Shown here: positions 9,234 through 30,426 of the stretch, one piece after another
Numbering within the stretch: position 1 is the first letter of the stretch
Layout of the letters: each line of letters starts with the position of its first letter
NCBI RefSeq assembly: GCF_000293785.1
Contig: NZ_AKZI01000090.1
Coordinates: 1-64,000, forward strand
DNA from: Rhodovulum sp. PH10
GTDB taxonomy: Bacteria; Pseudomonadota; Alphaproteobacteria; Rhizobiales; Xanthobacteraceae
Reading direction: 5' to 3'
DNA: 64,000 nucleotides
Program-made: the position numbers and the translations under genes
The notes under the pieces: generated by a model
Told to the model about the DNA's origin: nothing
Seen by the model: the letters and a program-made list of their open reading frames with translations, nothing else
Database searches by the model: none

Positions 9234-11909
9234 ATGGAAACGACCGAGGGAACGCCCATGACGTCCGAATCCGCTCCTGCGACCGCTGCCGAGAGGCGGC
9301 CCGACGAGATCCTGCCGGAGGAGATGTCGCCGGAGGAGACGCTATCCGACGAGACGCTGCCGGAGGAGACGCTGCCGGAGCACGCGTCGGCAGAGCCGTC
9401 GCCGGCAGACGAGACGCTGCCCGAGAACGAGTTCGTGGTCGCCCACGCCGCGGCGTCGGCCGACGAGCCCGGGTTTTCGGCCGACCACTCGCCCGAGCCG
9501 CTGCCCGAGCCCGAGCCGGCGACCGCCTGGGCCGGCAACGGCGCCACCCCGCCGCCCGGCGCGGAAGCCATGGCAGACGCGGAAGCCGCGGCGGATGCGG
9601 AAGCCGTGGCGGAGCCCGCGCCGCCGCCCGGCGAGCCGCGCCCGGAGCCCGCCGCGGCGGCCGACCAGGTCGCCGGCGAGGATGCCGCGCCGCCGGACAC
9701 GATGGTGCGCGCCGAGCCGCCCCTCGACGCCCCCACCGGTGCGGCCGGACACGATGTGGCCGGACACGAAACGGCTTCCGGCGAAGCCGCCAAGGAAGCA
9801 GCCGGCGACGCCGGCCGCGAGACCGTGCTCGCCGAGCGCGTCGCCGCGCCGATCCCGCCGATCCCGCCGATGGCCCCCGCCGAGGCGGTGCCGGCCGCCA
9901 CGCCGGCCGAGCAGGCCGCCGCCGAGCTGAAGGCCGCGCAGACCAAGGGCAAGCCCTCGAAGGCCGAAGCCCCGAAAGCCGAAGCTCCGAAGGCCGCGCC
10001 CGCCAAGGCAGAGCCCGCCAAGGCCGAAGCTCCGAAGCGTGAGCCGTCCGAAGCACCGGCCAAAAAGGCCGAAAAAGCCGGGGCGGCGAAACCCGCCGCC
10101 GCCGCCGGCGACGGCCAGGCCGAGACGCCGCACGTCGACATCGAGAAGCTCGCCACCAATGTCGCTCGCATGATGGAGCAAGGCGGGCGGGCGCTCGCCG
10201 CGTACCTGAAGCCGCGCGAGGAAGGAAAGATCCACGACGAGCCGCCGCAGCAGGTGGTCGACGTGGTGACCACCTTCGGCAAGGTGATGGACTATTGGCT
10301 GCGCGACACCCGTCGCACCATCGAGCTGCAGACCAATATCGGCCACGCTTATCTCGATCTGTGGTCCAACACGATGCGCCGGATGGCCGGCGAGCCCTCG
10401 CCGCCGCTGGTGACGCCCGACCCGCGCGACCGCCGCTTCTCCGACCCGGAATGGACGTCGAACCAGTATTTCGACTTCCTCAAGCAGGCGTATCTGCTCA
10501 CCAGCAAGCTCGCCAATCACATGGTGGAGGACGCCGACGGGCTCGACCCGATCACCCGGCGCAAGGCGGATTTTTACGTCAAGCAGTTCATCAACGCGCT
10601 CGCCCCGTCGAACTTCGTTCTGACGAACCCGGAGCTGTTGCGCCTGACGCTGCAGTCGAACGCCGAGAACCTCGTGCGCGGCATGAAGATGCTGGCCGAG
10701 GACATCGAGGCGGGGCACGGCGAGCTGAAGATCCGCCAGTCCGACAACTCGCAGTTCGAGGTCGGCCGCAATCTGGCGATCACGCCGGGCAAGGTCGTCT
10801 ATCAGAACGAGCTGATGCAGCTGATCCAGTACACGCCGACCACCGAGCGCGTGCTGAAGCTGCCGCTGCTGATCGTGCCGCCGTGGATCAACAAATATTA
10901 CATCCTCGACCTCAACCCGCAGAAGTCGTTCATCAAGTACTGCGTCGACAACGGCGTCACGGTGTTCACGATCTCCTGGGTCAATCCGGACGAGCACCTC
11001 GCCAAGAAGGGGTTCGGCGACTACATGAAGCAGGGGCCGCTGGAGGCGCTGGAGATCGTCTCGAAGATCACCGGCGAGAAGAACGTCCACACGCTCGGCT
11101 ACTGCGTCGGCGGCACCATGCTCGCGGTGACGATGGCCTATCTCTCGGCGCGGAGCACGGCCGAGCAGATCCGCTCGGCCACCATGTTCACCGCCCAGGT
11201 CGATTTCGAGCGCGGCGGGGACCTGAAGCTGTTCACCTCCGACGAGCACCAGATCGAGGCGATCGAGCGGCGGATGTCGGAGATCGGCTATCTCGAGGGC
11301 GAGAAGATGGCCATGATCTTCAACTTCCTGCGCTCGAACGATCTGGTGTGGCCCTACATCATCTCCAACTATCTGAAGGGCGAGCAGCCGTTCCCGTTCG
11401 ACCTGCTCTACTGGAACTCCGATTCCACGCGGATGCCGGCGGCGAACCACTCCTACTATCTGCGCAACTGTTATCTCGACAACACCCTGAGCAAGGGGGA
11501 GATGGAGATCGAGGGCTACACGCTGCACCTCGAGGACATCGCGGTGCCGATCTACACGGTGGCGACCCGCGAGGACCACATCGCGCCGGCCGACTCCGTG
11601 CTGGTGGGGGCGCAGATGTTCGGTGGCCCGGTCGAGCTGGTGGTCGCCGGCTCCGGCCACATCGCCGGCATCATCAATCCGCCGGCCGGCAAGAAGTATC
11701 AGTACTGGACCGGCCCGCGCCCCGAGGGCGACAGCGCCGAAGCGTGGATCGCGAAAGCGACCGAGCATCCGGGCTCGTGGTGGCCGCACTGGCTCGAATG
11801 GCTGCGCGCCTTCGACCCGAGCGAGGTGCCGGCCCGCGTGCCGGGCAGCCACCCGGACTTCCCGGCGCTCGAGGACGCCCCCGGCGCCTACGTCAAGGTG
11901 CGCGCCTGA
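9234..11909 (+). CDS. phaC: Class I poly(3-hydroxyalkanoate) synthase PhaC with long N-terminal extension, 891 aa
   Basis: Polymerises (R)-3-hydroxyacyl-CoA into PHA on granules. The catalytic core starts near residue 302 (IEKLATNVARMMEQGGRAL) and is of normal class I length (about 590 aa). The lipase-like box GYCVGG holds the nucleophile Cys624; Asp781 (TREDHIAP) and His809 (GSGHIAG) complete the triad. Residues 1-300 are unusual. First comes an acidic Glu/Pro/Leu repeat region (EETLPEETLPE), then an Ala/Pro/Glu-rich linker, then Lys/Ala/Pro repeats (KAEAPKAEAPKAAPAKAEPA) like the tails of PhaF or histone H1-like proteins. The start is supported by AAGGAG and a promoter just upstream; an in-frame ATG at 9258 is a weaker alternative. 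No phaA, phaB, phaR or phasin gene is adjacent. Confidence 0.96.
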   Translation: METTEGTPMTSESAPATAAERRPDEILPEEMSPEETLSDETLPEETLPEHASAEPSPADETLPENEFVVAHAAASADEPGFSADHSPEPLPEPEPATAWAGNGATPPPGAEAMADAEAAADAEAVAEPAPPPGEPRPEPAAAADQVAGEDAAPPDTMVRAEPPLDAPTGAAGHDVAGHETASGEAAKEAAGDAGRETVLAERVAAPIPPIPPMAPAEAVPAATPAEQAAAELKAAQTKGKPSKAEAPKAEAPKAAPAKAEPAKAEAPKREPSEAPAKKAEKAGAAKPAAAAGDGQAETPHVDIEKLATNVARMMEQGGRALAAYLKPREEGKIHDEPPQQVVDVVTTFGKVMDYWLRDTRRTIELQTNIGHAYLDLWSNTMRRMAGEPSPPLVTPDPRDRRFSDPEWTSNQYFDFLKQAYLLTSKLANHMVEDADGLDPITRRKADFYVKQFINALAPSNFVLTNPELLRLTLQSNAENLVRGMKMLAEDIEAGHGELKIRQSDNSQFEVGRNLAITPGKVVYQNELMQLIQYTPTTERVLKLPLLIVPPWINKYYILDLNPQKSFIKYCVDNGVTVFTISWVNPDEHLAKKGFGDYMKQGPLEALEIVSKITGEKNVHTLGYCVGGTMLAVTMAYLSARSTAEQIRSATMFTAQVDFERGGDLKLFTSDEHQIEAIERRMSEIGYLEGEKMAMIFNFLRSNDLVWPYIISNYLKGEQPFPFDLLYWNSDSTRMPAANHSYYLRNCYLDNTLSKGEMEIEGYTLHLEDIAVPIYTVATREDHIAPADSVLVGAQMFGGPVELVVAGSGHIAGIINPPAGKKYQYWTGPRPEGDSAEAWIAKATEHPGSWWPHWLEWLRAFDPSEVPARVPGSHPDFPALEDAPGAYVKVRA

Positions 11910-11969
11910 CCCGCGTCGGCGCTCGCGCCGGCGCTTTCGTCGGCCGGCGACGACCGGCCTTCCGGCCCG

Positions 11970-11995
11970 GAGGCGGCATCCGCGGATGCCGCCTC
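11970..11995. other. 26-base perfect palindrome downstream of phaC
   Basis: GAGGCGGCATCC and its exact reverse complement meet around a CGCG-centred core in the 248-base spacer between phaC and the CBS-BON gene. No T-run follows, so intrinsic termination is doubtful; an mRNA 3'-end stabiliser or a protein site is possible. Directly after it the sequence GTTTGCCGATCACG is repeated twice in tandem (about 11999-12027). Confidence 0.55.
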
Positions 11996-16355: not shown

Positions 16356-16970
16356 TCAGGCGGGCGGCAGGTCGGCGAGCCGGAGCGAGAGATCGTCGGC
16401 GAAATCGAGCCGCAACGGCTCGTCGGGGCCGACCGTTCGCTGCTCGGCGAAGCCGTCGATCCCCGGCCGCGCATGGACGTGGGTGACCAGCCGCTCGGCC
16501 TCGATCACCCACACCGCGCGCACGCCGGCGGCCGCGTAAATCCGGCTTTTTCGATGAAGATCGTAAGCGAGGCTCGAATCGGCGACCTCGACGGCGAGCA
16601 GCGCGGTCGCCGGCGACAGTGCGGCGAGCCCGTCGGCGCGGCGGTAGAACACGAAATCGGGCTCGACGAAGCTGTCCGGGGAGAGACGGAAGGTCGTTTC
16701 CGGGGCGATGGCGATCTCCGGCGGCAGATGGGCGGCCCAGAACATGTTCAGGCTCACCTTCAGCGTCTCGTGACGGATGCCCTTCGGTGACATCGGCACG
16801 ACCTCCCCGCCGATCAGCTCGAACCGCTCGTCCTCCGGGATCACGCCCGCCGCCACCATCGCCTCGATCTCGGCGACGCTGAAGCGTCGCCGCATCAGGC
16901 CTTCGGCGGCCTGGGTCGTCCGAAGCAGATCCGGGGGACGCAGTTCCGGGGGCCGGGGGATCTCGTTCAT
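16356..16970 (-). CDS. Uma2 family (DUF820) putative PD-(D/E)XK nuclease, 204 aa
   Basis: The family fold is visible: RRRFSVAEIEAMVAAGVIPE, ERFELIGGEVVPMSPKGIRH (family signature), TTFRLSPDSFVEPDFVFYRR with the core Asp, then LLAVEVADSSLAYDLHRKSR with the Glu and Lys of the nuclease-like motif, and VRAVWVIEAERLVTHVHARP. Uma2 proteins are abundant in cyanobacteria and some Rhizobiales, often next to mobile DNA; substrates are not established. The start at ATG 16970 (MNEIPRPPEL) is chosen because the 15 residues upstream overlap repeat-like sequence. It lies 45 bases after the MltB-type gene on the same strand. A paralogue is found at 23684-24283. Confidence 0.88.
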   Translation of the reverse strand: MNEIPRPPELRPPDLLRTTQAAEGLMRRRFSVAEIEAMVAAGVIPEDERFELIGGEVVPMSPKGIRHETLKVSLNMFWAAHLPPEIAIAPETTFRLSPDSFVEPDFVFYRRADGLAALSPATALLAVEVADSSLAYDLHRKSRIYAAAGVRAVWVIEAERLVTHVHARPGIDGFAEQRTVGPDEPLRLDFADDLSLRLADLPPA

Positions 16971-17015
16971 GCCGGGCAGGGTATCACGGAGGCGGCGCAA
17001 CCGGAACGCGGGCAT

Positions 17016-17843
17016 TCACCCGCCGAGGCGCTGGGCGAACAAGACCATGGTCTTGCGGTAGATCTCCGAGCGGTTCCACTCGCGCATCACCTGGAAATTC
17101 GCGGTGCCCTCGCCATAGGGCGCGCCGGCCTGCCAGCCGTTGGTGCGCAGCAGATTCGCGGTCGAGGCGAGCACGTCCGGCACGCTGTGGCGCAGATCGA
17201 CGTGGCCGTTGCCGTCGTAGTCGACGCCGTACTTGATGTAGGAGGACGGCAGGAACTGGGTCTGGCCGATCTCGCCGGCATAGGCGCCGACCAGGTCGCG
17301 CAGCGGCAGGTCGCCGCGCTGGACGATCATCAGCGCCGCCAACAGCTCGCCCTGAAAGAGCTCGGTGCGACGGCAGTCGTGAGCGAGCGTGGCGAGGGTG
17401 CGGACCACCGGCCGCTTGCCCATGTCGCCGGTGCCGTTGTCGCTCTCGAGCGTCCAGATCGCCATCAAAAGCTCCTTCGGCACGCCGTACTGCCGCTCGA
17501 TGCGGGACAGCAGCGCGGCGTGACGGGCCATCAGCTTGCGGGCGCGGTTGATGCGGGCCGGCACCACGCGGGTCCGGGCGTACTCCTCGAAGCTCTTGCG
17601 AAAGGTGCCGCGCTGGCGGCGGTCGAAGGCGAGCACCGCCTGGTCCTCGGAGAGCCCCGAAAAGGCCGCATCGATCACCCCGCGCGAAATCCCGGCGGCC
17701 TGCGCCTCGCGCGCCATCGCACCGAGGAAGCGGCCGAAGTCGCCGCCGCATTGCGCCGCCGAGGCGGGCGCCGCGCCGAGCGCCGGCAGCGCGAGAAAAC
17801 CGAGAAGCGCGCAGATGCGCGCCGCCACCTTCGATGCGATCAT
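17016..17843 (-). CDS. Secreted lytic murein transglycosylase, MltB (SLT_2) type, 275 aa
   Basis: A Sec signal peptide (ICALLGFLALPALGAAPASAA) is followed by an SLT_2-type catalytic domain: FGRFLGAMAREAQAAGISRG, VLAFDRRQRGTFRKSFEEYA, then YGVPKELLMAIWTLESDNG with the catalytic Glu, and AYAGEIGQTQFLPSSYIKYG, closing with DYDGNGHVDLRHSVPDVLAS. It cleaves the MurNAc-GlcNAc bond to yield 1,6-anhydro ends in the periplasm. No peptidoglycan-binding domain follows, so it is a short form. The start at ATG 17843 gives the signal peptide. One of the direct repeats flanking the neighbouring two-gene module lies only 62 bases upstream, probably within its promoter region. Confidence 0.93.
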   Translation of the reverse strand: MIASKVAARICALLGFLALPALGAAPASAAQCGGDFGRFLGAMAREAQAAGISRGVIDAAFSGLSEDQAVLAFDRRQRGTFRKSFEEYARTRVVPARINRARKLMARHAALLSRIERQYGVPKELLMAIWTLESDNGTGDMGKRPVVRTLATLAHDCRRTELFQGELLAALMIVQRGDLPLRDLVGAYAGEIGQTQFLPSSYIKYGVDYDGNGHVDLRHSVPDVLASTANLLRTNGWQAGAPYGEGTANFQVMREWNRSEIYRKTMVLFAQRLGG

Positions 17844-17904: not shown

Positions 17905-17923
17905 GTACGGCAGGGAAAAGGCG
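17905..17923 (+). repeat. Left copy of a 19-bp perfect direct repeat
   Basis: GTACGGCAGGGAAAAGGCG occurs here and again, identically and in the same orientation, at 21338-21356. The repeats bracket the unknown-protein/TPR gene pair. No such match is expected by chance over 3.4 kb, so this looks like a duplicated target or a recombination site. Confidence 0.75.
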
Positions 17924-18086
17924 CGGCACAACCCATCGAAACCCAGTTGCCGAAACCAAGCACCGCCAACGCTGGACCAGGAAAGCACTTACCAGTCTGG
18001 ACCGCTTCGGCTACGGTATTCACGAGGCTCACGTTTCAGGCAGTCGATTTTGCTCCCTTGGCCGACCGCAACCGTTTCCGAGACCA

Positions 18087-19000
18087 ATGAGATTCGACAA
18101 CCCTTCGCTGCAGGACGGGCTCCTCGAGTGGCGTAAACTCCCGGGCACAAAGGAGCGCTCGGAAGCAGACAACCTTTGGTTCGAGGACCGTGTGAGCACG
18201 AAACGACGTCTCGCATTCGAACAGGAGGCACACGAAGCGTCCAATCAGAGCGAACTGCGAAGGGCCCAAGCCGACTATTGGAGCGAATTCGTCCGCGTCG
18301 ACGAAGGTGTCCCGCACACGTTCGCCGCACAACTCGAGCCGGCGGACCTCGGGCCGATCGACGAAACACAGAAGATCGTGCGCCTCGAATCTTTGACGCG
18401 CCCACTGAACGATCACGGAATCTCGTTCGGCGACCTCTTGCGAGCTCACGCAAAAGGCGAGCACGGGGTGATCGACGCATTTCTGGCCGTCTGGAACACC
18501 GCCGGTGTGCGTGACGGGCGGCCGGCGTTCGGCGCCTTCGAGGACGAGGTGATCGACGATTTGAAATCCGACGAATGGCCTCGGCGGCTCCGTGACCGGC
18601 TCGGCCTCGCCCACTACGATTGCCGGTACGGCCCCATTCCCGTCGCCCTTATGGAGTACACGGTGGCCGAGGTGAGAGCCGCCGCTGCCAAGGCTTCCGT
18701 GGCCTGCGCCTTCACGGCCCCACGGTTCTCGACAGCGGCCCGTGGCCGTATTTCTTCCCAGCACCACCGGAGCTTTCCTGCGGGCGCACGATGGCCCTCT
18801 ACGAGGTTCAGGACGACAAGGAACTGTTAGCGGAAGTCCTTCATTTTCGGATAGACTACGCACGTCGTCACCTCGCGAAGCTCGGCGAGATCCGCGAACC
18901 TCCTCGGGCATACGACCTCCGGAGCCTTCGCAACCGTCACCTGCTCGCCTTGCACATCGCCGCAGGACGGGACGATTTCGGAGAAGACATTCCGGAATGA
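18087..19000 (+). pseudogene. Unrecognised protein of about 304 aa, split by an apparent 1-base frameshift
   Basis: The first frame runs from ATG 18087 (MRFDNPSLQDGLLEWRKLPG) through KASVACAFTAP at about 18720. The sense then continues in the -1 frame as TVLDSGPWPYFFPAPPELSC...GRDDFGEDIPE to the TGA at 18998-19000. Restoring one C in the CCCC run at 18718-18721 fuses the two into one smooth protein, so a base has been lost, or is missing from the sequence. Without it the first frame ends at 18830. The protein is charged, with no signal peptide, membrane helix or motif I recognise. Its stop overlaps the ATG of the TPR gene (ATGA at 18997-19000), so the pair is translationally coupled. Base composition is visibly less GC-rich than in flanking genes. 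Confidence 0.7.
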
Positions 19001-21186
19001 GCGCCCTGAGGAAGGACATGCCCCCCGATCGCCATCCCTGGCTGGTGCGGTTCGAGCACGCGCCGGAGGAGGCCCTCGGCGACCTGCTCGCGGGCTATGC
19101 CGACATCCATCCCTACGAGCGGGCGGATGCGCCCGACGCCGCGCGCATGCTGTTCGGCCCGCTCGATCCGGACAATCCGGCGCGGAGCCTCTTGGGGCCA
19201 GCACTCCTGTCGTGGCTGGAGAAGCGGCGGAAGGACCCGCTGCCGGCCGCGCGCCCCAAGCTGCAGCGCCGGATCCGGGAGATCGACGAGGCTTTCGAGA
19301 TCGTCGCGCTGCTGGAGGTGGCCGACGCGGCGATCGCGCTGCGCCGGCGCCTCCATGTCTGGACCGATTGGACCGCGCGGCTCGTGCTGTCGCCGGCGCG
19401 GGACGGTCGCGCCGCGTTGTGGCGCACGCTGGCCCTGACCCAGCCTCTGGTCGCCGCGCACGCGCCGGATCTCGACGCCGACGGTCTCGCACCGCTGTGG
19501 CAGCAGATCTGCCGCGAGGCCGGTGCCCGCGTGCCGCAGCACTATCTGTCGATCGGCCTGCTCGGCCTGCGGCGGCTGCCGAGGGGCAACGCGGGCTCGG
19601 AGCTGCCATGGGTGGCCGGGCTCGCCCAGTGGGCGCTCGCCCGGAATCCGTCCGACGCCGAGTTCGAGGCCGAGTGGCTCGGGCTCAAGCCGCTCTATCC
19701 GCGCGCGCCGGAGCGGTGGCGGAAGCTCGTCTCGACCCTGCTGTCGACCCGCGAGTTCCGGGACCACGAGATCGAGCCGCCGGGCTGGTGGCGAGTCGAT
19801 CCGGACTTCAAGTCGCTGGTGCAGAAGCGTTATGTCGCCTCGGGAGTTCCGCTGCGCTCTCCGATGCCGGAGGACTGCAGCCGCGTCATCGACCGGCTCG
19901 ACGAGCCGTTCGAAAAAATCGAGCCGCTGATCGACGACCTGTTCCGGCGGCACCGCCACTATCTCCATGCGACCGGCCATTCCCACTATTTCGTGCGGGC
20001 CGTTCACATGCTCGGCAGCGAGCTGATCGGGCGGGGCGAGGACGCCCGCGATGCGCGCGCCGAGAAGGCGCAGGCTTTGGCCCGCGAAGGGCTCACATGG
20101 GAGCCTTACAACCGTCACCTGTGGGCACTGTGGCGCGACGCGCTGGTGGCCGGCGGCACGCCCGAGGCCGCCGAGCTGATCGGATGGGAGATGATCCGAA
20201 GGGACCCAGGGAATATGAATGCTCGGAACCAGCTCGCAACGCTGCTCGTCAACGAGCTCGGCCGGCTCGACGACGCCGAGGCGCTGCTCGGGGACACGAT
20301 CGAGACGTTCCCCGACGACGACGTCGCGCGAAACGAGCTGGCCGAGCTGCTGATCTTCGAGGATCGCATCGACGAGGCCACGACGATCGTCGACACGGCG
20401 TTCGACGACGGGATCATAAGTGAAGCTACATTTTCCCTGCGGGCACGGCTGCTGTCGCATGCGGGACGACACGACGATGCGTTGCGCGTCCTCGAAGAGG
20501 GGCTCGCGCTGGATCCGATGTCGTCCTCGCTCGAACGACAAAAGCTGAGCTTAATCAAGGGCGCATCGATATCACTAAAAAGCGGAGCGTTCCGAACGCT
20601 TGCGCCTCGTGGATCGGAACGCTCCCTGCCCGCCCCGACGTTCGACCCGGAGCTTACCGGCGTAATGCGGCTCGGATCCGTTCGACGGCTGCGCTTCAGC
20701 TTGGAGGTGGCATCCGCGCAACAGCCAGCGAGCGCACTGGATGAGCTTCGTCAAATCCTCAGTGAAGACCCGACCTTCGCCTATGCCGAGCTGCTGGCGG
20801 CGCGCCATCGCCTCTGGGAGGCCGACGCGAGCACGCTGCCTCCGTTCGCCGCCGCCTTCGAGGCCGCGCTCGCAGCCGAAGACCGTGTCACGCTCGAGGC
20901 GCTCGCGACGAGGCAGCCGAAGCTCGAAGCGCTGATGCTGGTCGCCAAGGCTCTGATCGGAGACGCTGCGGCGGCGGAGGAGGTCGCACAATGGCTCCGC
21001 CGGTCGGAGCCGGCGCTCGAAGAGCCGGCCATCGCCGGTCTTCGAAACGCCCTCGGCTCGGTATTGCGCCTGATCGACGGCGGTCATTCCCCGCAGGATG
21101 CATTCTCCGAGATGCGAGAGCGCGCACTTCGCGCGGTGCGCGATGCCAACGAGGCAGCCCTCGGGGACATGTTTCTCGCCGCATGA
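18997..21186 (+). CDS. Large helical-repeat (TPR-like) protein, 729 aa, unknown function
   Basis: Starts at the ATG inside ATGA at 18997 (MSALRKDMPPDRHPWLVRFE). It has no signal peptide. The first 360 residues are a helical region of no known family (DEAFEIVALLEVADAAIALR, WTDWTARLVLSPARDGRAAL, FDEPFEKIEPLIDDLFRRHR-like segments). Residues 370-530 show TPR-type repeats (LTWEPYNRHLWALWRDALVA, NARNQLATLLVNELGRLDDA, VARNELAELLIFEDRIDEAT, SHAGRHDDALRVLEEGLALD). A Ser/Leu linker and further helical repeats end the protein. TPRs suggest a scaffold for protein partners, most obviously the upstream 304-aa protein. The stretch near 20550-20640 is distinctly AT-richer. The pair is flanked by 19-bp direct repeats. 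Confidence 0.85.
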   Translation: MSALRKDMPPDRHPWLVRFEHAPEEALGDLLAGYADIHPYERADAPDAARMLFGPLDPDNPARSLLGPALLSWLEKRRKDPLPAARPKLQRRIREIDEAFEIVALLEVADAAIALRRRLHVWTDWTARLVLSPARDGRAALWRTLALTQPLVAAHAPDLDADGLAPLWQQICREAGARVPQHYLSIGLLGLRRLPRGNAGSELPWVAGLAQWALARNPSDAEFEAEWLGLKPLYPRAPERWRKLVSTLLSTREFRDHEIEPPGWWRVDPDFKSLVQKRYVASGVPLRSPMPEDCSRVIDRLDEPFEKIEPLIDDLFRRHRHYLHATGHSHYFVRAVHMLGSELIGRGEDARDARAEKAQALAREGLTWEPYNRHLWALWRDALVAGGTPEAAELIGWEMIRRDPGNMNARNQLATLLVNELGRLDDAEALLGDTIETFPDDDVARNELAELLIFEDRIDEATTIVDTAFDDGIISEATFSLRARLLSHAGRHDDALRVLEEGLALDPMSSSLERQKLSLIKGASISLKSGAFRTLAPRGSERSLPAPTFDPELTGVMRLGSVRRLRFSLEVASAQQPASALDELRQILSEDPTFAYAELLAARHRLWEADASTLPPFAAAFEAALAAEDRVTLEALATRQPKLEALMLVAKALIGDAAAAEEVAQWLRRSEPALEEPAIAGLRNALGSVLRLIDGGHSPQDAFSEMRERALRAVRDANEAALGDMFLAA

Positions 21187-21576
21187 TTCGGTAGGAAGTG
21201 CTTTCGGCCCTCTTCTTCGTTCGCTCGATCATTTTCTATCTGCTCGATGCTCGGCTTTTCCGGCCTATTCGATCGGCCGAGCGCTCCTGAGCTTCGTCTC
21301 GTCGAGTGGCGCTCTCGACTTGCTCTGCCCAAACGGCGTACGGCAGGGAAAAGGCGGCGGCCGTCGCATCGAGCCTCCGCAATACGGCATGGCCGCCCGG
21401 CGCCCGGCGGGACGCAGGAGAGCCGAGCGTTGCGTGACGGCGCCCGCACCGCATGCCAAAATCACATGACATACCGATCGACCTGCTTGTGTGTGCATTC
21501 CCTGCCTGCCCGCTCGTCGCTCCTTCCAGACCCCGGCAGACGCCACCCTGCACATGACGCCCTGGAGGCGATGCCG
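21187..21576. other. Gene-free spacer with the right end of the direct-repeat module
   Basis: This 390-base stretch follows the TPR gene. Its first 150 bases are AT-richer than the surroundings; the right 19-bp repeat lies at 21338-21356, after which normal GC-rich sequence leads to the oxidoreductase gene. No further credible gene, hairpin with T-run or tRNA was seen. A GGAGG ribosome site closes the stretch at 21564-21568. Confidence 0.5.
21338..21356 (+). repeat. Right copy of the 19-bp perfect direct repeat
   Basis: GTACGGCAGGGAAAAGGCG, identical to 17905-17923. Bases flanking the two copies differ, so the identity is limited to these 19 bases. Loss of one repeat plus the DNA between would restore a short spacer between the mltB-type gene and the oxidoreductase. 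Confidence 0.75.
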
Positions 21577-23667
21577 ATGAGCGTGGAAGAGGCGCCTTGC
21601 GCCTGCGTGGTCGTTGCGATGCGGACGGCTCTGCGTCGCCGGTGGCGGGCCGCGGAGAATGCGGGTCGCCCGCTTCGCCGCACGCTCGCGCAAGCGACCC
21701 GGCTGATCACCCAGATCACCAACGGACGCGGATCGCAAAAGACGCTGGACGGGCTCGAGCGGCTGTGCCCCGAGCTCGCGCTGCTCGACGCGGAGGCGGC
21801 CGACGCGCTGTCCGGCTCGCTCGCCCGGGCGCACGACGAGTGGCTGTGCCATGCGGTCGACGGCACCTGCTCGGCGGGCGTCTGCTTCCTGCCGAACGTC
21901 GCGCCCTGCCGCGCCGCCTGCCCGGCCGACATCGACATTCCGGGCTTTCTCGCCCATATCGGCGCCGGCGATTATGGCGAGGCCCTGCGGCTGATCGGCG
22001 AGGACAACCCGCTGCCGCACTCGTGCGGCCTGGTCTGCCCCGCGCCGTGCGAAAGCGCATGCGTGCGCGGCGCGACCGGCTCCGCGCTGTTCATCCGCCC
22101 GCTCAAGGCGGTGGTCGCCGAGCAGTGCTGCACCGTGCCCTCCCCCCGTCGCTCGCCGTCCGGCAAGCGGGTCGCGGTGGTGGGCTCGGGCCCCTCCGGC
22201 CTGACGATCGCCTATTATCTCGCGATGCGCGGCCACCGGGTCGAGGTGTTCGAGGCCCGCGAAAAGGCCGGCGGGATGATGCGCTACGGCATCCCGTCCT
22301 ACCGGCTGCCGGCGCACGTGCTGGACGCCGAGATCGCCCACATCACGCGCGCCGGCGTGACGATCCACACGGGGGCGGAGATCCGCTCGCTCGGGGCGTT
22401 GCGCGAAAAAGGCTTCGAGGCGACCTATCTCGCGCTCGGCCTGCAGCTCTCCAGGCGGGCCGGCATTCTCGGCGAGGAGCTGCCGTTCGTGCACGGCGCG
22501 CTCGACTTTCTGGCGAGCGTCGCGGCCGGCAAGAACCCGCGGGTCGGCCCGCGCGTGGTGGTGATCGGCGGCGGCAACTCGGCGGTCGACGCGGCGATGA
22601 CCGCGCTGCGCCAGGGCGCCCGCCACGTCTCGATGGTCTATCGCGGCCGCCGCAAGGAGATGCGGGCGAGCCCGCACGAGATCGCGCTCGCGGTCGCCGA
22701 GGGCGTCGAGATCCTCGAACTGTGGACGCCCGACCGGGTGCTGCCCGACAACCGCGTTATCTTCACCCGCTCGCCCAAGGCGACCGAGGCCGAGCGCCGA
22801 GGCGGCGAGGCCTTGACGCTGAAGGTCGACCACGTGCTCGCCGCGGTCGGCCAGCAGGCGGCGCTCGACTGCCTCGCCGGCAGCCGGGTGGAGGTGAAGG
22901 GCGGCTTCATCGTCGCCGACCCGGTGACCGGCGCGACCGCCGAGCCCGGCGTCTATGCCGGCGGCGACATCGCCCACGGCGCATCGACCGTGGTGGCGGC
23001 GGTGCAGGCCGGCAAGGCCGCCGCCGACGCGATCCACGAATATCTCACCGGCGAGACCGCGGCGCCGCAGGCCGAGGCCGTGCCGGCGCCGCTGGTCGAG
23101 GTCGACGCGATCCAGCGCAGCGTGCGGCTGCGGCCGACCATGCCGGAGCGCAACGCCCGCGAGCGGACCGCCGGCTATCACACGATCGAGCTCGGCCTCG
23201 GCGAGGCCGACGCCAAGCGCGAGGCGAGCCGCTGCCTGCGCTGCGACGTGTGCATCGGCTGCGGCCTGTGCGAGCTGGTGTGCAGCGAGGTCGGCGCCGA
23301 GGCGCTGCGGATGGACGAGGCGGCCGGCGGCCGCATGGTGTTCACCGACTTCACCCGGCCGGCGACGAGCTGCATCGGCTGCGGCGCCTGCGCCGCGGTG
23401 TGCCCGACCGGCGCCATCAAGGTGGAGAGCGACACCTCGACCCGCACGACCAGCATCACCGGCACGGTGGTGTGCCGCCAGCCGATGCTGACCTGCGAAT
23501 CGTGCGGCGAGTACTACGTCACCGCGGCGCAGTTCGACCGGGTGCGCGACACCCTGCCGAACGGCGAAAACATGCGGCACCTGTGCCCCGACTGCAGCCG
23601 TCGCGAGCACGTCGCCGCGCTCCAGCGCGCCGACGAGGGCCGGCTGCTGGCACTGATGGGGCGGTGA
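21577..23667 (+). CDS. GltD-like FAD/NAD(P)H Fe-S oxidoreductase with C-terminal ferredoxin and zinc-ribbon-like ends, 696 aa
   Basis: Residues 1-100 are a helical extension. Residues 107-185 form the GltD-type [4Fe-4S] domain (CFLPNVAPCRAACPADIDIP, CGLVCPAPCESACVRG). The FAD motif is RVAVVGSGPSGLTIAYYLA (203-208 GSGPSG), and the NAD(P)H motif is VVVIGGGNSAVDAAMTALR (331-336). Two 4Fe-4S clusters follow (CLRCDVCIGCGLCELVC, CIGCGACAAVCPTGAIK), then CESCGEYY...CPDCSRRE, a CxxC-x26-CxxC arrangement like a zinc ribbon. It probably passes electrons between NAD(P)H and ferredoxin or a partner enzyme. No GltB large subunit is present, so it is not glutamate synthase. KorC-like NADPH:ferredoxin reductase is one alternative. 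ATG 21577 is chosen for its 8-base spacing from GGAGG. Confidence 0.85.
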   Translation: MSVEEAPCACVVVAMRTALRRRWRAAENAGRPLRRTLAQATRLITQITNGRGSQKTLDGLERLCPELALLDAEAADALSGSLARAHDEWLCHAVDGTCSAGVCFLPNVAPCRAACPADIDIPGFLAHIGAGDYGEALRLIGEDNPLPHSCGLVCPAPCESACVRGATGSALFIRPLKAVVAEQCCTVPSPRRSPSGKRVAVVGSGPSGLTIAYYLAMRGHRVEVFEAREKAGGMMRYGIPSYRLPAHVLDAEIAHITRAGVTIHTGAEIRSLGALREKGFEATYLALGLQLSRRAGILGEELPFVHGALDFLASVAAGKNPRVGPRVVVIGGGNSAVDAAMTALRQGARHVSMVYRGRRKEMRASPHEIALAVAEGVEILELWTPDRVLPDNRVIFTRSPKATEAERRGGEALTLKVDHVLAAVGQQAALDCLAGSRVEVKGGFIVADPVTGATAEPGVYAGGDIAHGASTVVAAVQAGKAAADAIHEYLTGETAAPQAEAVPAPLVEVDAIQRSVRLRPTMPERNARERTAGYHTIELGLGEADAKREASRCLRCDVCIGCGLCELVCSEVGAEALRMDEAAGGRMVFTDFTRPATSCIGCGACAAVCPTGAIKVESDTSTRTTSITGTVVCRQPMLTCESCGEYYVTAAQFDRVRDTLPNGENMRHLCPDCSRREHVAALQRADEGRLLALMGR

Positions 23668-23683: not shown

Positions 23684-24283
23684 TCAGCGCAGATCGAGCT
23701 CGGCGAGGCGGACTTCGAGCGAGGCGGCGACGAGCGGCACGAGCCGTTCGTCGGACGCTCGTTCGACGATCGAGCGATACCCCTCCGGCGTCGGCTCGCG
23801 ATGGACGTGGGCGACCAGCCGCACGGCGTCGATCACCCACAACTCGGCGATGCCGAAGCCGGCATAGAGCGACGCCTTCAGGCCGAGATCGTAGCCGAGG
23901 CTCGAATCGGCGATCTCCACCACCAGCCTCGCCGTGCCGGCCGACAAACCCTTGATTCCGCTCGCCCTGGGATAAAAGACGAAATCCGGCTCGAGATAGG
24001 TGTCCGCGGTGAGCCGGAAGGTCGTCTCCGTGACCAGCATCAGGTCGTCCGGCAGCCGCCGCGCCCAGTGAACATTCAAGGCCGCCTTCAGCATCTCGTG
24101 CCGGTTGCCCTTGGACGCCATCGGCACGACCTCCCCACCGATCAGCTCGATGCGCTCGTCCTCGGCGATGATCCCCTTGGCCGTCATCTCCTCGATCTCG
24201 GCCACGGTGAAGCGCCGCCGCAGCAACCCCTCGGCGGCGGTGGTGGTGAGCGGCAGCCCGGGCGGACGAAAAGTTCCGTTCAT
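23684..24283 (-). CDS. Uma2 family (DUF820) putative nuclease, second copy, 199 aa
   Basis: The same architecture as the gene at 16356-16970: RRRFTVAEIEEMTAKGIIAE, ERIELIGGEVVPMASKGNRH, TTFRLTADTYLEPDFVFYPR, RLVVEIADSSLGYDLGLKAS, IAELWVIDAVRLVAHVHREP. The two proteins are clearly paralogous, with many identical blocks. The conserved Asp (EPDFVFY), Glu (VVEIADSS) and Lys (GLKAS) are present, so the nuclease-like site looks intact. The start at ATG 24283 (MNGTFRPPGL) matches the paralogue's N terminus. It is convergent with the oxidoreductase gene, 16 bases away, and opens a run of small accessory modules separated by palindromic repeats. Confidence 0.88.
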   Translation of the reverse strand: MNGTFRPPGLPLTTTAAEGLLRRRFTVAEIEEMTAKGIIAEDERIELIGGEVVPMASKGNRHEMLKAALNVHWARRLPDDLMLVTETTFRLTADTYLEPDFVFYPRASGIKGLSAGTARLVVEIADSSLGYDLGLKASLYAGFGIAELWVIDAVRLVAHVHREPTPEGYRSIVERASDERLVPLVAASLEVRLAELDLR

Positions 24284-24330
24284 GCGAGCCAGGGTAGCAC
24301 GGCGGGCGGTGGGGAAGGAACCGGCCTCGA

Positions 24331-24390
24331 TCTGCACGACCTCCGAGGCGAACCGACCTCCGGATGATCGGCGGGCGAGAGGTCGAGCGC
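24331..24390 (-). pseudogene. Relic of a DUF1902 gene 3' end
   Basis: The words ATCTGCACGAC (24331-24341) and GGGCGAGAGGTCGAGCGC (24373-24390) recur at 24775-24785 and 24806-24823, at the 3' end of the intact DUF1902 gene. Here the match stops and joins directly to the GTAGGGTGGGC element, as though about 140 bases of the gene body had been deleted. It is an old duplication remnant. Confidence 0.5.
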
Positions 24391-24398
24391 GCTGTCCC

Positions 24399-24496
24399 GT
24401 AGGGTGGGCAGCGCGAAGCGCACCCACCGGCAGTCCGTCGCCCACCGACGCGCGCACCGCGTGGGCACGGCGCTTTCGCGCTTCTGCCCACCCTAC
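24399..24496. repeat. GTAGGGTGGGC inverted-repeat element, copy 1
   Basis: The left arm GTAGGGTGGGCA(GC)GCGAAGCGC and right arm GCGCTTTCGCG...TGCCCACCCTAC are inverted copies around a GC-rich centre (98 bp). Copy 2 is at 24979-25075, and a shorter relative is at 30365-30390. It is a non-coding, MITE- or REP-like element. Confidence 0.75.
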
Positions 24497-30364: not shown

Positions 30365-30426
30365 GATGGGCAAAGCGAAGCGTGCCCATCTGCGAGTGGC
30401 GAGTGGCGAGTGGCGAGTGGCGAGTC
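30365..30426. repeat. GATGGGC palindrome plus five GCGAGTG tandem repeats
   Basis: 30365-30390 is an imperfect palindrome (GATGGGCAAAGCGAAGCGTG, ending CCCATC). 30392-30426 is the 7-bp unit GCGAGTG repeated five times, the last ending in C. Similar units in inverse orientation lie at 31188-31310, on the other side of the brnTA genes. Confidence 0.8.

What the first reader, a model, noticed from the sequence alone, without database searches (positions are those of the whole stretch)
17905..21356. Two-gene module of unknown function bracketed by 19-bp perfect direct repeats
GTACGGCAGGGAAAAGGCG occurs at 17905-17923 and 21338-21356 in the same orientation. Between them lie only an unrecognised ~304-aa protein and a coupled 729-aa TPR-type protein, both less GC-rich than neighbours. 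The unit sits between a transglycosylase and an oxidoreductase gene and carries no transposase or integrase. This looks like a compact passenger inserted, or deletable, by recombination at short repeats. A TPR protein paired with a small unknown partner is a layout seen in some defence or conflict loci, but nothing here proves that role. It is the window's best candidate for an undescribed system.
Basis: partly seen in the sequence, partly recalled or inferred. Interest (0 to 1): 0.65.

Follow-up and report, generated by a model that had tools for sequence, protein, structure and literature searches.

The report
Rare two-gene cargo, probably phage defence
A rare pair of adjacent genes, one without recognised relatives and one a helical-repeat protein, sits in a changeable chromosome spot here and in scattered other bacteria, and in some phages it fills a slot where related phages often carry DNA-restriction genes, so it may be an undescribed anti-virus defence module; its first gene is broken in this genome.

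Summary
The 19-bp repeat is exact and unique in the genome, but only modestly improbable. Its left copy is an old element upstream of mltB, kept in pair-less relatives; the right copy was seen only here. G004 has the pair at the same site without a right copy, so the repeats are not its ends. The "304-aa protein" is not one open frame: gene A is frameshifted in this window, intact in G004. A (about 300 aa) matches no Pfam, PHROG or PDB family convincingly; B is a TPR protein. A is followed directly by B in 29 of 32 loci, and their divergence correlates (r = 0.88). The pair is rare, patchy and changes neighbours. In three IMG/VR phage contigs it lies between terminase and portal genes. In related phages that slot is a hypervariable cargo site rich in restriction-modification genes, and two divergent A-B pairs entered it in opposite orientations. 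A fourth copy lies in an integrase/relaxase element beside Vsr and a C5-methyltransferase. Best reading: an undescribed two-component accessory defence module of unknown chemistry. Against it: chromosomal copies show no clear defence island (no matched control), and nothing was tested at the bench.

The parts
18087..18719 (+). gene A, N-terminal part (open frame runs on to a stop at 18830, but is A-like only to about 18722)
   Evidence: 67% identity to G004 A residues 1-212
18713..19000 (+). gene A, C-terminal part, in a different frame: gene A is frameshifted here
   Evidence: 83.5% identity to G004 A residues 211-307 (alignment runs just past the stop); stop overlaps the B start as ATGA
18997..21186 (+). 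gene B, 729-aa TPR protein with an N-terminal region of its own
   Evidence: translation; PF14559 TPR_19 41.3 bits, cut-off 25; TPR superhelix about 283-524
17905..17923 (+). left 19-mer: conserved element upstream of mltB
   Evidence: same element with 2-3 mismatches at the syntenic place in G001, G002, G003 and 5 in G004
21338..21356 (+). right 19-mer: second copy, found only in this genome
   Evidence: left flank unlike that of the ancestral element; no copy to the right of the pair in G004
17016..17843 (-). mltB-type lytic transglycosylase, conserved left neighbour
   Evidence: SLT_2; TIGR02283 above cut-off; 79-81% identity in G001-G004
21586..23667 (+). GltD-like Fe-S/FAD oxidoreductase, right neighbour with no close orthologue in the relatives searched (start codon not settled)
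   Evidence: best-scoring match in 9 other genomes has 41% identity
25757..27898 (-). rpoD, right border of the variable stretch; abuts the pair in G004
   Evidence: 713 aa; PDB RpoD chains at E 2e-270; 88-92% identity in the genus

Best explanation
A-B is an undescribed two-component accessory module that spreads horizontally and most likely protects its carrier against phages or other mobile DNA. Shown: A and B are a tightly spaced gene pair that diverges as a unit; it is rare and patchy, changes chromosomal address, and is carried by phages in a slot where related phages often carry restriction-modification genes. Inferred: the two proteins form a complex in which the TPR superhelix of B recognises an infection signal or a phage protein, and A, or the complex, carries out the block, by a chemistry that cannot be read from the sequence. 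In this genome the module sits in a variable stretch between mltB and rpoD and is probably non-functional, because gene A is frameshifted, unless that is a sequencing error or the frames are read separately.
For: Pairing: A directly followed by B on the same strand in 29 of 32 loci with hits, plus L138 and L139; junctions from a 19-nt overlap to a 2-nt gap in the 12 loci checked of these 34; A and B distances correlate, Mantel r = 0.88, 0 of 2000 permutations, the 21 pairs held in both alignments (shared host history adds to this). Patchiness: 4 of 296 family genomes, 2 of 385 of the class, 16 of 398 of the phylum, own genome included in these; 6 of 82 in the order of G667. Phage slot: pair between terminase and portal in L082, L138, L139 (portal confirmed by PDB portal chains). 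The 71 distinct contigs with both genes have 1.6-6.7 kb between them, lower in GC than the rest in 71 of 71, 51 cargo types among 70. 98 non-A-B cargo representatives (46,973 residues) match 475 PADLOC families, 92 controls (30,795 residues) from the same contigs match 2. Pfam finds N6/N4 methylases, ResIII, HSDR, EcoRI, XhoI, XamI, BsuBI/PstI domains. Methyltransferase motif in 53 of 149 gap ORFs against 5 of 373 outside. Recurrent entry: terminases of L138 and L082 are 94% identical, their A and B only 27% and 29%, and the pair is inverted. L081: pair in one element with integrase, relaxase, Vsr and C5-methyltransferase.
Against: The chromosomal copies show no clear defence island: among 121 neighbours the commonest PADLOC families matched 2 (GlgB, MotB-like, desaturase models); no MTase_II model is among the 25 of 88 listed, though single matches such as RT_UG29 (E 1e-36), DolB and MkoA occur; these were not examined one by one and there was no control set. 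No known defence or toxin domain was found in A or B. Some cargo of the slot is not defence-like: a dipeptidase and a DHDPS domain. 21 of 70 slots lack the methyltransferase motif, two of them the A-B slots; not all were otherwise classified. Restriction genes in a phage may serve to protect the phage's own DNA. Only four element-borne loci are known, three from one phage group. The pair in this window and G004 looks resident (B 74% identity; MltB 82%, DnaG 81%, RpoD 91%). No function was tested.
Confidence: 0.5

Rival explanations
1. A-B is an accessory two-gene operon with a physiological role (regulation, stress, envelope or storage), lost and gained like many accessory genes; its phage copies are ordinary morons.
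For: Chromosomal copies have diverse neighbours that look like housekeeping genes by eye and show no clear defence island; TPR proteins are mostly adaptors (general knowledge); the pair in G000 and G004 shares its site, and B (74%) is not far less conserved than MltB or DnaG.
Against: Separate entries into a restriction-modification-rich slot of phages in both orientations and placement near Vsr and a methyltransferase in L081.
Confidence: 0.28
2. A-B is a toxin-antitoxin-like or abortive-infection pair in which one protein restrains the other (this overlaps with the best explanation).
For: Tightly spaced gene pair, co-divergence, patchy distribution; defence by abortive infection would look the same.
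Against: Sizes (about 300 and 700 aa) and no toxin or antitoxin family match. In this genome gene A is broken while B is open, which speaks against B being a toxin held by A, if the frameshift is real.
Confidence: 0.2
3. A and B are phage packaging or head-assembly accessory genes, since they lie between terminase and portal.
For: Position in L138 and L139, same strand as terminase and portal.
Against: Inverted in L082; the other 68 contigs examined have other genes in the slot; most copies known are chromosomal, without phage genes noticed beside them by eye.
Confidence: 0.03
4. The unit between the 19-bp repeats is itself a small mobile element or cassette that inserted here by the 19-bp sites.
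For: Perfect repeats on both sides; one copy of the element in the pair-less relatives G001-G003.
Against: G004 has the pair at the same site with no right copy; the left copy is old; right flanks do not match clearly (of 8 comparisons one reached p 0.03, G003 against the left copy's right flank); A and B are no recombinases. The loci beyond L062-L068 were not searched for the 19-mer.
Confidence: 0.07

Closest known systems
[quoted passage not shown] 2022, PMC9122126; passages read)
   Same: Variable cargo of antiviral genes at a fixed place in the phage genome, including a two-gene cassette; a protein with TPRs proposed as sensors occurs there.
   Different: The TPR protein described there is a TIR-STAND-TPR protein; no TIR or STAND family is among the Pfam matches listed for B. 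The slot here is between terminase and portal, in another phage group.
Restriction-modification systems (other occupants of the slot)
   Same: Same genomic niche in related phages; few genes; patchy.
   Different: No methylase or nuclease family match in A or B.
TPR proteins such as LbcA (PDB 7rqf, 8sxf) and OGT
   Same: B has a TPR superhelix at about residues 283-524.
   Different: Common fold only, which shows no shared function; model confidence moderate (mean pLDDT 71.8).

Membership tests
TPR protein (B) | tandem TPR motifs above curated cut-off | tested here: met
   TPR_19 41.3 bits, cut-off 25; TPR_17 30.4, cut-off 24.4; 21 of 23 B members match TPR_19 at E 0.01
Known defence systems of PADLOC-DB 2.0.0 (2023) | match of A or B to a model | tested here: not met
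   window A parts none; B only PrimPol, E 0.008. Only the window's proteins were scanned; systems described after 2023 were not tested.
Restriction-modification system | DNA methyltransferase and/or restriction nuclease domain | tested here: not met
   no such family match
Defence cargo of a phage hotspot | located in a variable slot between core phage genes whose other cargo is largely defence genes | tested here: met
   three phage contigs; for these phage copies only, not for the window's own copy
Anti-phage defence system | reduces phage infection, loss of protection on mutation | not testable with these tools
   needs plating assays
Chromosomal defence island | neighbours enriched in known defence genes | tested here: inconclusive
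   121 neighbours of the chromosomal loci: commonest PADLOC family in 2 members, 88 families in all, 25 listed; no control set
Toxin-antitoxin module | known toxin or antitoxin family | tested here: not met
   no such match in Pfam, NCBIfam or PADLOC
Toxin-antitoxin module | one product toxic, the other neutralising | not testable with these tools
   needs expression
Transposable or integrative element bounded by the 19-mer | own recombinase between the repeats | tested here: not met
   A and B fill the interval and match no recombinase; overlapping ORFs in other frames were not scanned
Transposable or integrative element bounded by the 19-mer | empty site with one copy and both flanks joined | tested here: inconclusive
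   G001-G003 have one diverged copy; left flanks match in G001 and G002, not in G003; right flanks do not match clearly

The most novel reading that the evidence does not exclude
A-B is a new two-component anti-phage immune system with an effector or sensor protein (A) of a family for which no convincing match was found in Pfam, PHROGs or PDB, recruited more than once by temperate phages into a terminase-portal slot that serves as a reservoir of restriction-modification and other defence genes.
Probability: 0.47. Interest if true: 0.7.

Novelty: new variant of a known kind. Interest (0 to 1): 0.54.

Why it matters
If true, it adds a defence module whose first protein has no recognised relative, and that a search of defence islands could miss because its chromosomal copies seem to stand alone; the link shows through phage cargo. 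The terminase-portal slot of this phage group, rich in restriction-modification genes, is a place to look for further unknown systems.

Tried and rejected
Searches that gave nothing: B against plasmids and phages, A against phages; A against plasmids gave one weak partial match at E 0.05. Pfam, PHROGs and PDB searches with the A family gave only weak matches that I judged chance. The one scan of genome contigs went to the 19-mer (four exact matches in unrelated phyla), so that collection was not scanned for A or B.

Structure of A: AlphaFold2 on six rows gave mean pLDDT 45, pTM 0.28, too poor for a fold search, so none was made. B: mean pLDDT 71.8; matches are common TPR solenoids; the N-terminal 280 residues were not folded alone, so nothing is said of their fold.

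Vertical or lateral at the mltB site: a small tree (mltB, rpoD, dnaG and two further proteins that lacked G004) places G000 outside the other four species of the genus examined, with weak support (0.65) inside; presence in G000 and G004 fits ancestral presence with two losses, or two gains. An earlier tree gave another order, but used a wrong frame for mltB, as its lower identities show, and was discarded.

Considered and dropped: 19-mer as a regulon motif (only two copies in the genome); the oxidoreductase as part of the unit (no close orthologue in the nine other genomes). A first gene-calling pass of the phage gaps with a codon model missed low-GC cargo and was replaced by longest non-overlapping ORFs, some of which may be antisense. 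In the neighbour scan 18 of 139 proteins were left out before the count: 9 very long or probably antisense ORFs, to stay within the residue limit, and the 9 of L133 and L136; the window's own neighbours were not in it. Gene calls in GC-rich loci are approximate. The 80 terminase loci are the best 80 of at least 600, a biased sample; L138, L139 and L082 were found through A-B, so 3 of 71 is no frequency. A PDB search did not confirm the transposase that I named by eye in L080.

Full report
What is in the window. The 19-mer occurs twice and nowhere else in the window or genome at up to three mismatches. It is one of seven maximal exact direct repeats of 19 bp or more in the window, and 12 of 60 Markov sequences of the same composition had at least one, so length alone is weak evidence. 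Between the copies lie two genes. B (18997-21186) is an open frame of 729 aa with TPR motifs. A is not open: its N-terminal part starts at 18087 in one frame, its C-terminal part (about 18713-19000) is in another. The intact homologue in G004 has 308 aa. A's stop and B's start overlap as ATGA.

The site. In G004, of the same genus, the pair lies at the same place beside mltB, in the same orientation, and then abuts rpoD; B is 74% identical. G001, G002 and G003 (99-100% complete) have mltB but no match to the pair. G005 is 58% complete and says little. Between mltB and rpoD the content differs among the genomes compared: in this genome the pair, the second 19-mer, an oxidoreductase without close orthologue in nine other genomes and a Uma2 gene. 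The left 19-mer is an old element upstream of mltB: it recurs at that place with 2 (G001, G002), 3 (G003) and 5 (G004) mismatches (a 5-mismatch match also occurs elsewhere in the G001 stretch, so the G004 one rests on its position). Its left flank aligns with G001 and G002 (shuffle p 0.012 and 0.002) and weakly with G004 (0.04), not with G003 (0.81). The left flank of the right copy resembles none of the four (p 0.36 or more), and that copy is missing in G004. Of eight right-flank comparisons one reached p 0.03 (G003 against the left copy's right flank), the others 0.2 or more. So the repeat marks the border of a variable stretch, but is not a demonstrated insertion footprint of the pair. The tree of the genus does not settle gain against loss.

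The pair elsewhere. A profile of A found it in 4 of 296 genomes of the family, 2 of 385 of the class and 16 of 398 of the phylum, own genome included, and in 6 of 82 of the order of G667. The profiles differ: A2, A6, so the rates are not strictly comparable. In 29 of 32 loci A is directly followed by B on the same strand; this counts two loci with fragments only (L080, L137). The exceptions are L127 (no B found by the profile), L133 (A cut short, no B) and L136 (weak matches, 1.7 kb apart). Junctions were tight in the 12 checked. Distances of A and B correlate with r = 0.88 over 21 pairs, 0 of 2000 permutations reaching it. Four genomes of one genus, g410, have the pair in three different surroundings, judged by eye (L113 and L114 alike, L116, L123). 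G004, G740, G748 and G1093 have two copies; G667 has an intact and a decayed one. The A family matched nothing convincing in Pfam (25 members), PHROGs (7 rows) or PDB; in NCBIfam and PADLOC only the window's parts were scanned.

Element-borne copies. Scans of IMG/VR found four: L081 and L082, L138 and L139. L081 carries, in order, a phage-type integrase, a relaxase with DUF3363, A, B, a Vsr endonuclease, a 315-aa protein without Pfam match at E 0.001, and a C5-methyltransferase. In L138 and L139 the order is terminase, A, B, portal; in L082 the pair lies in the same interval but inverted. The terminase of L082 matches GpA and the portal of L139 matches solved portal proteins (E 4e-34). The terminases of L138 and L082 are 94% identical, while their A and B are 27% and 29% identical, so different pairs entered the same slot separately.

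The slot. I fetched the best 80 relatives of the L138 terminase (of at least 600). With L138 and L139, 82 loci were examined; 10 had no portal within reach, and L181 repeats the L139 contig, which leaves 71 contigs; L162 is the L082 contig. They have 1.6 to 6.7 kb (median 3.4 kb) between terminase and portal, with lower GC than the rest of the fetched stretch in 71 of 71. 98 cargo representatives (A-B left out) matched 475 PADLOC families at E 1e-5, against 2 for 92 representatives of other genes in the same contigs. Many PADLOC models are overlapping methyltransferase models, so 475 is not a count of systems. Pfam shows amino-methylases (12, 11 and 11 members for three families, which may overlap), ResIII (5), C5-methylases (3), HSDR_N (3), MmeI (3) and single EcoRI, XhoI, XamI and BsuBI/PstI endonucleases, but also a dipeptidase and a DHDPS enzyme, among the 25 of 73 families listed. 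By a motif test, 49 of 70 loci (L162 and L181 left out) have a methyltransferase-like ORF in the slot; the 21 without include L138 and L139. Outside the slot 5 of 70 loci have one. Homologues of this terminase at E 1e-100 or better occur in 22 of 337 genomes of the window's class, not in G000, one at 97% identity.

Chromosomal neighbours. Against my reading: among 121 neighbours of the chromosomal pairs the commonest PADLOC families matched two proteins (GlgB, MotB-like and a desaturase model), 88 families in all, 25 listed, with single matches to RT_UG29, DolB, MkoA and others that were not examined. Without a control of other chromosomal genes this neither shows nor excludes a weak enrichment; it is nothing like the phage slot. 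Two loci of one genus, g403 (L121, L122), have an S24-type repressor gene just downstream of B.

Mechanism. The model of B shows a TPR superhelix at about 283-524; TPR superhelices bind peptides or proteins (general knowledge). No transmembrane or export signal stood out by eye in A or B; this was not computed. I therefore propose a complex with B as sensor or adaptor and A as the partner that acts. The family-wide conserved residues of A include Arg-Pro-x-Phe, Gly-x-x-His, Pro-Thr-x-Leu and Arg-x-x-His, which fit no catalytic motif that I recall. Which of the two proteins acts is open.

Literature. Searches of the held library for a terminase-portal slot with restriction-modification genes, and for a two-gene TPR defence module, listed no paper that I recognised as describing them (listings and starts of abstracts only, plus passages of PMC9122126, PMC13092281 and PMC12429752). 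DefensePredictor (PMC13092281) names TPR among the domains of its systems in two figure legends; whether any is related to B could not be told. Papers outside the open library were not seen.

Verdict. A real, rare, conserved two-gene accessory unit, its first protein without a recognised family; defence is the best-supported role, through the phage-borne copies; the 19-bp repeats are incidental or mark the variable site; the copy in this window looks damaged.

Noticed in passing
L141-L219 (IMG/VR), between terminase and portal genes: A phage group whose terminase-portal interval held low-GC cargo in all 71 contigs examined, with methyltransferase-like ORFs in 49 of 70; no description was found in the papers searched.
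   Followed up: partly
L081 8293-9240: A 315-aa protein without Pfam match between Vsr and a C5-methyltransferase, next to A-B: possibly a restriction enzyme.
   Followed up: partly
window 16356-17015 and 23684-24457: Two Uma2-family genes, both on the minus strand, on the two sides of the pair; they share exact matches of at least 18 bp (16568/23896, 16791/24119), and G001 has DNA like the second one directly next to its mltB element.
   Followed up: no
window 4586 and 38228: Exact direct repeat of 37 bp, 33.6 kb apart.
   Followed up: no
window about 30392-30423: Short tandem repeat with a 7-base period.
   Followed up: no
L121 12178-12843, L122 6129-6815: S24 repressor-type gene directly downstream of B in two genomes of genus g403 (G744, G722) with different further neighbours; may regulate the pair.
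   Followed up: partly
L080 8821-10057: Decayed A-B pair in G667 near an ORF (10817-11980) that looks by eye like a transposase, not confirmed in PDB, while an intact pair lies elsewhere in the same genome.
   Followed up: partly
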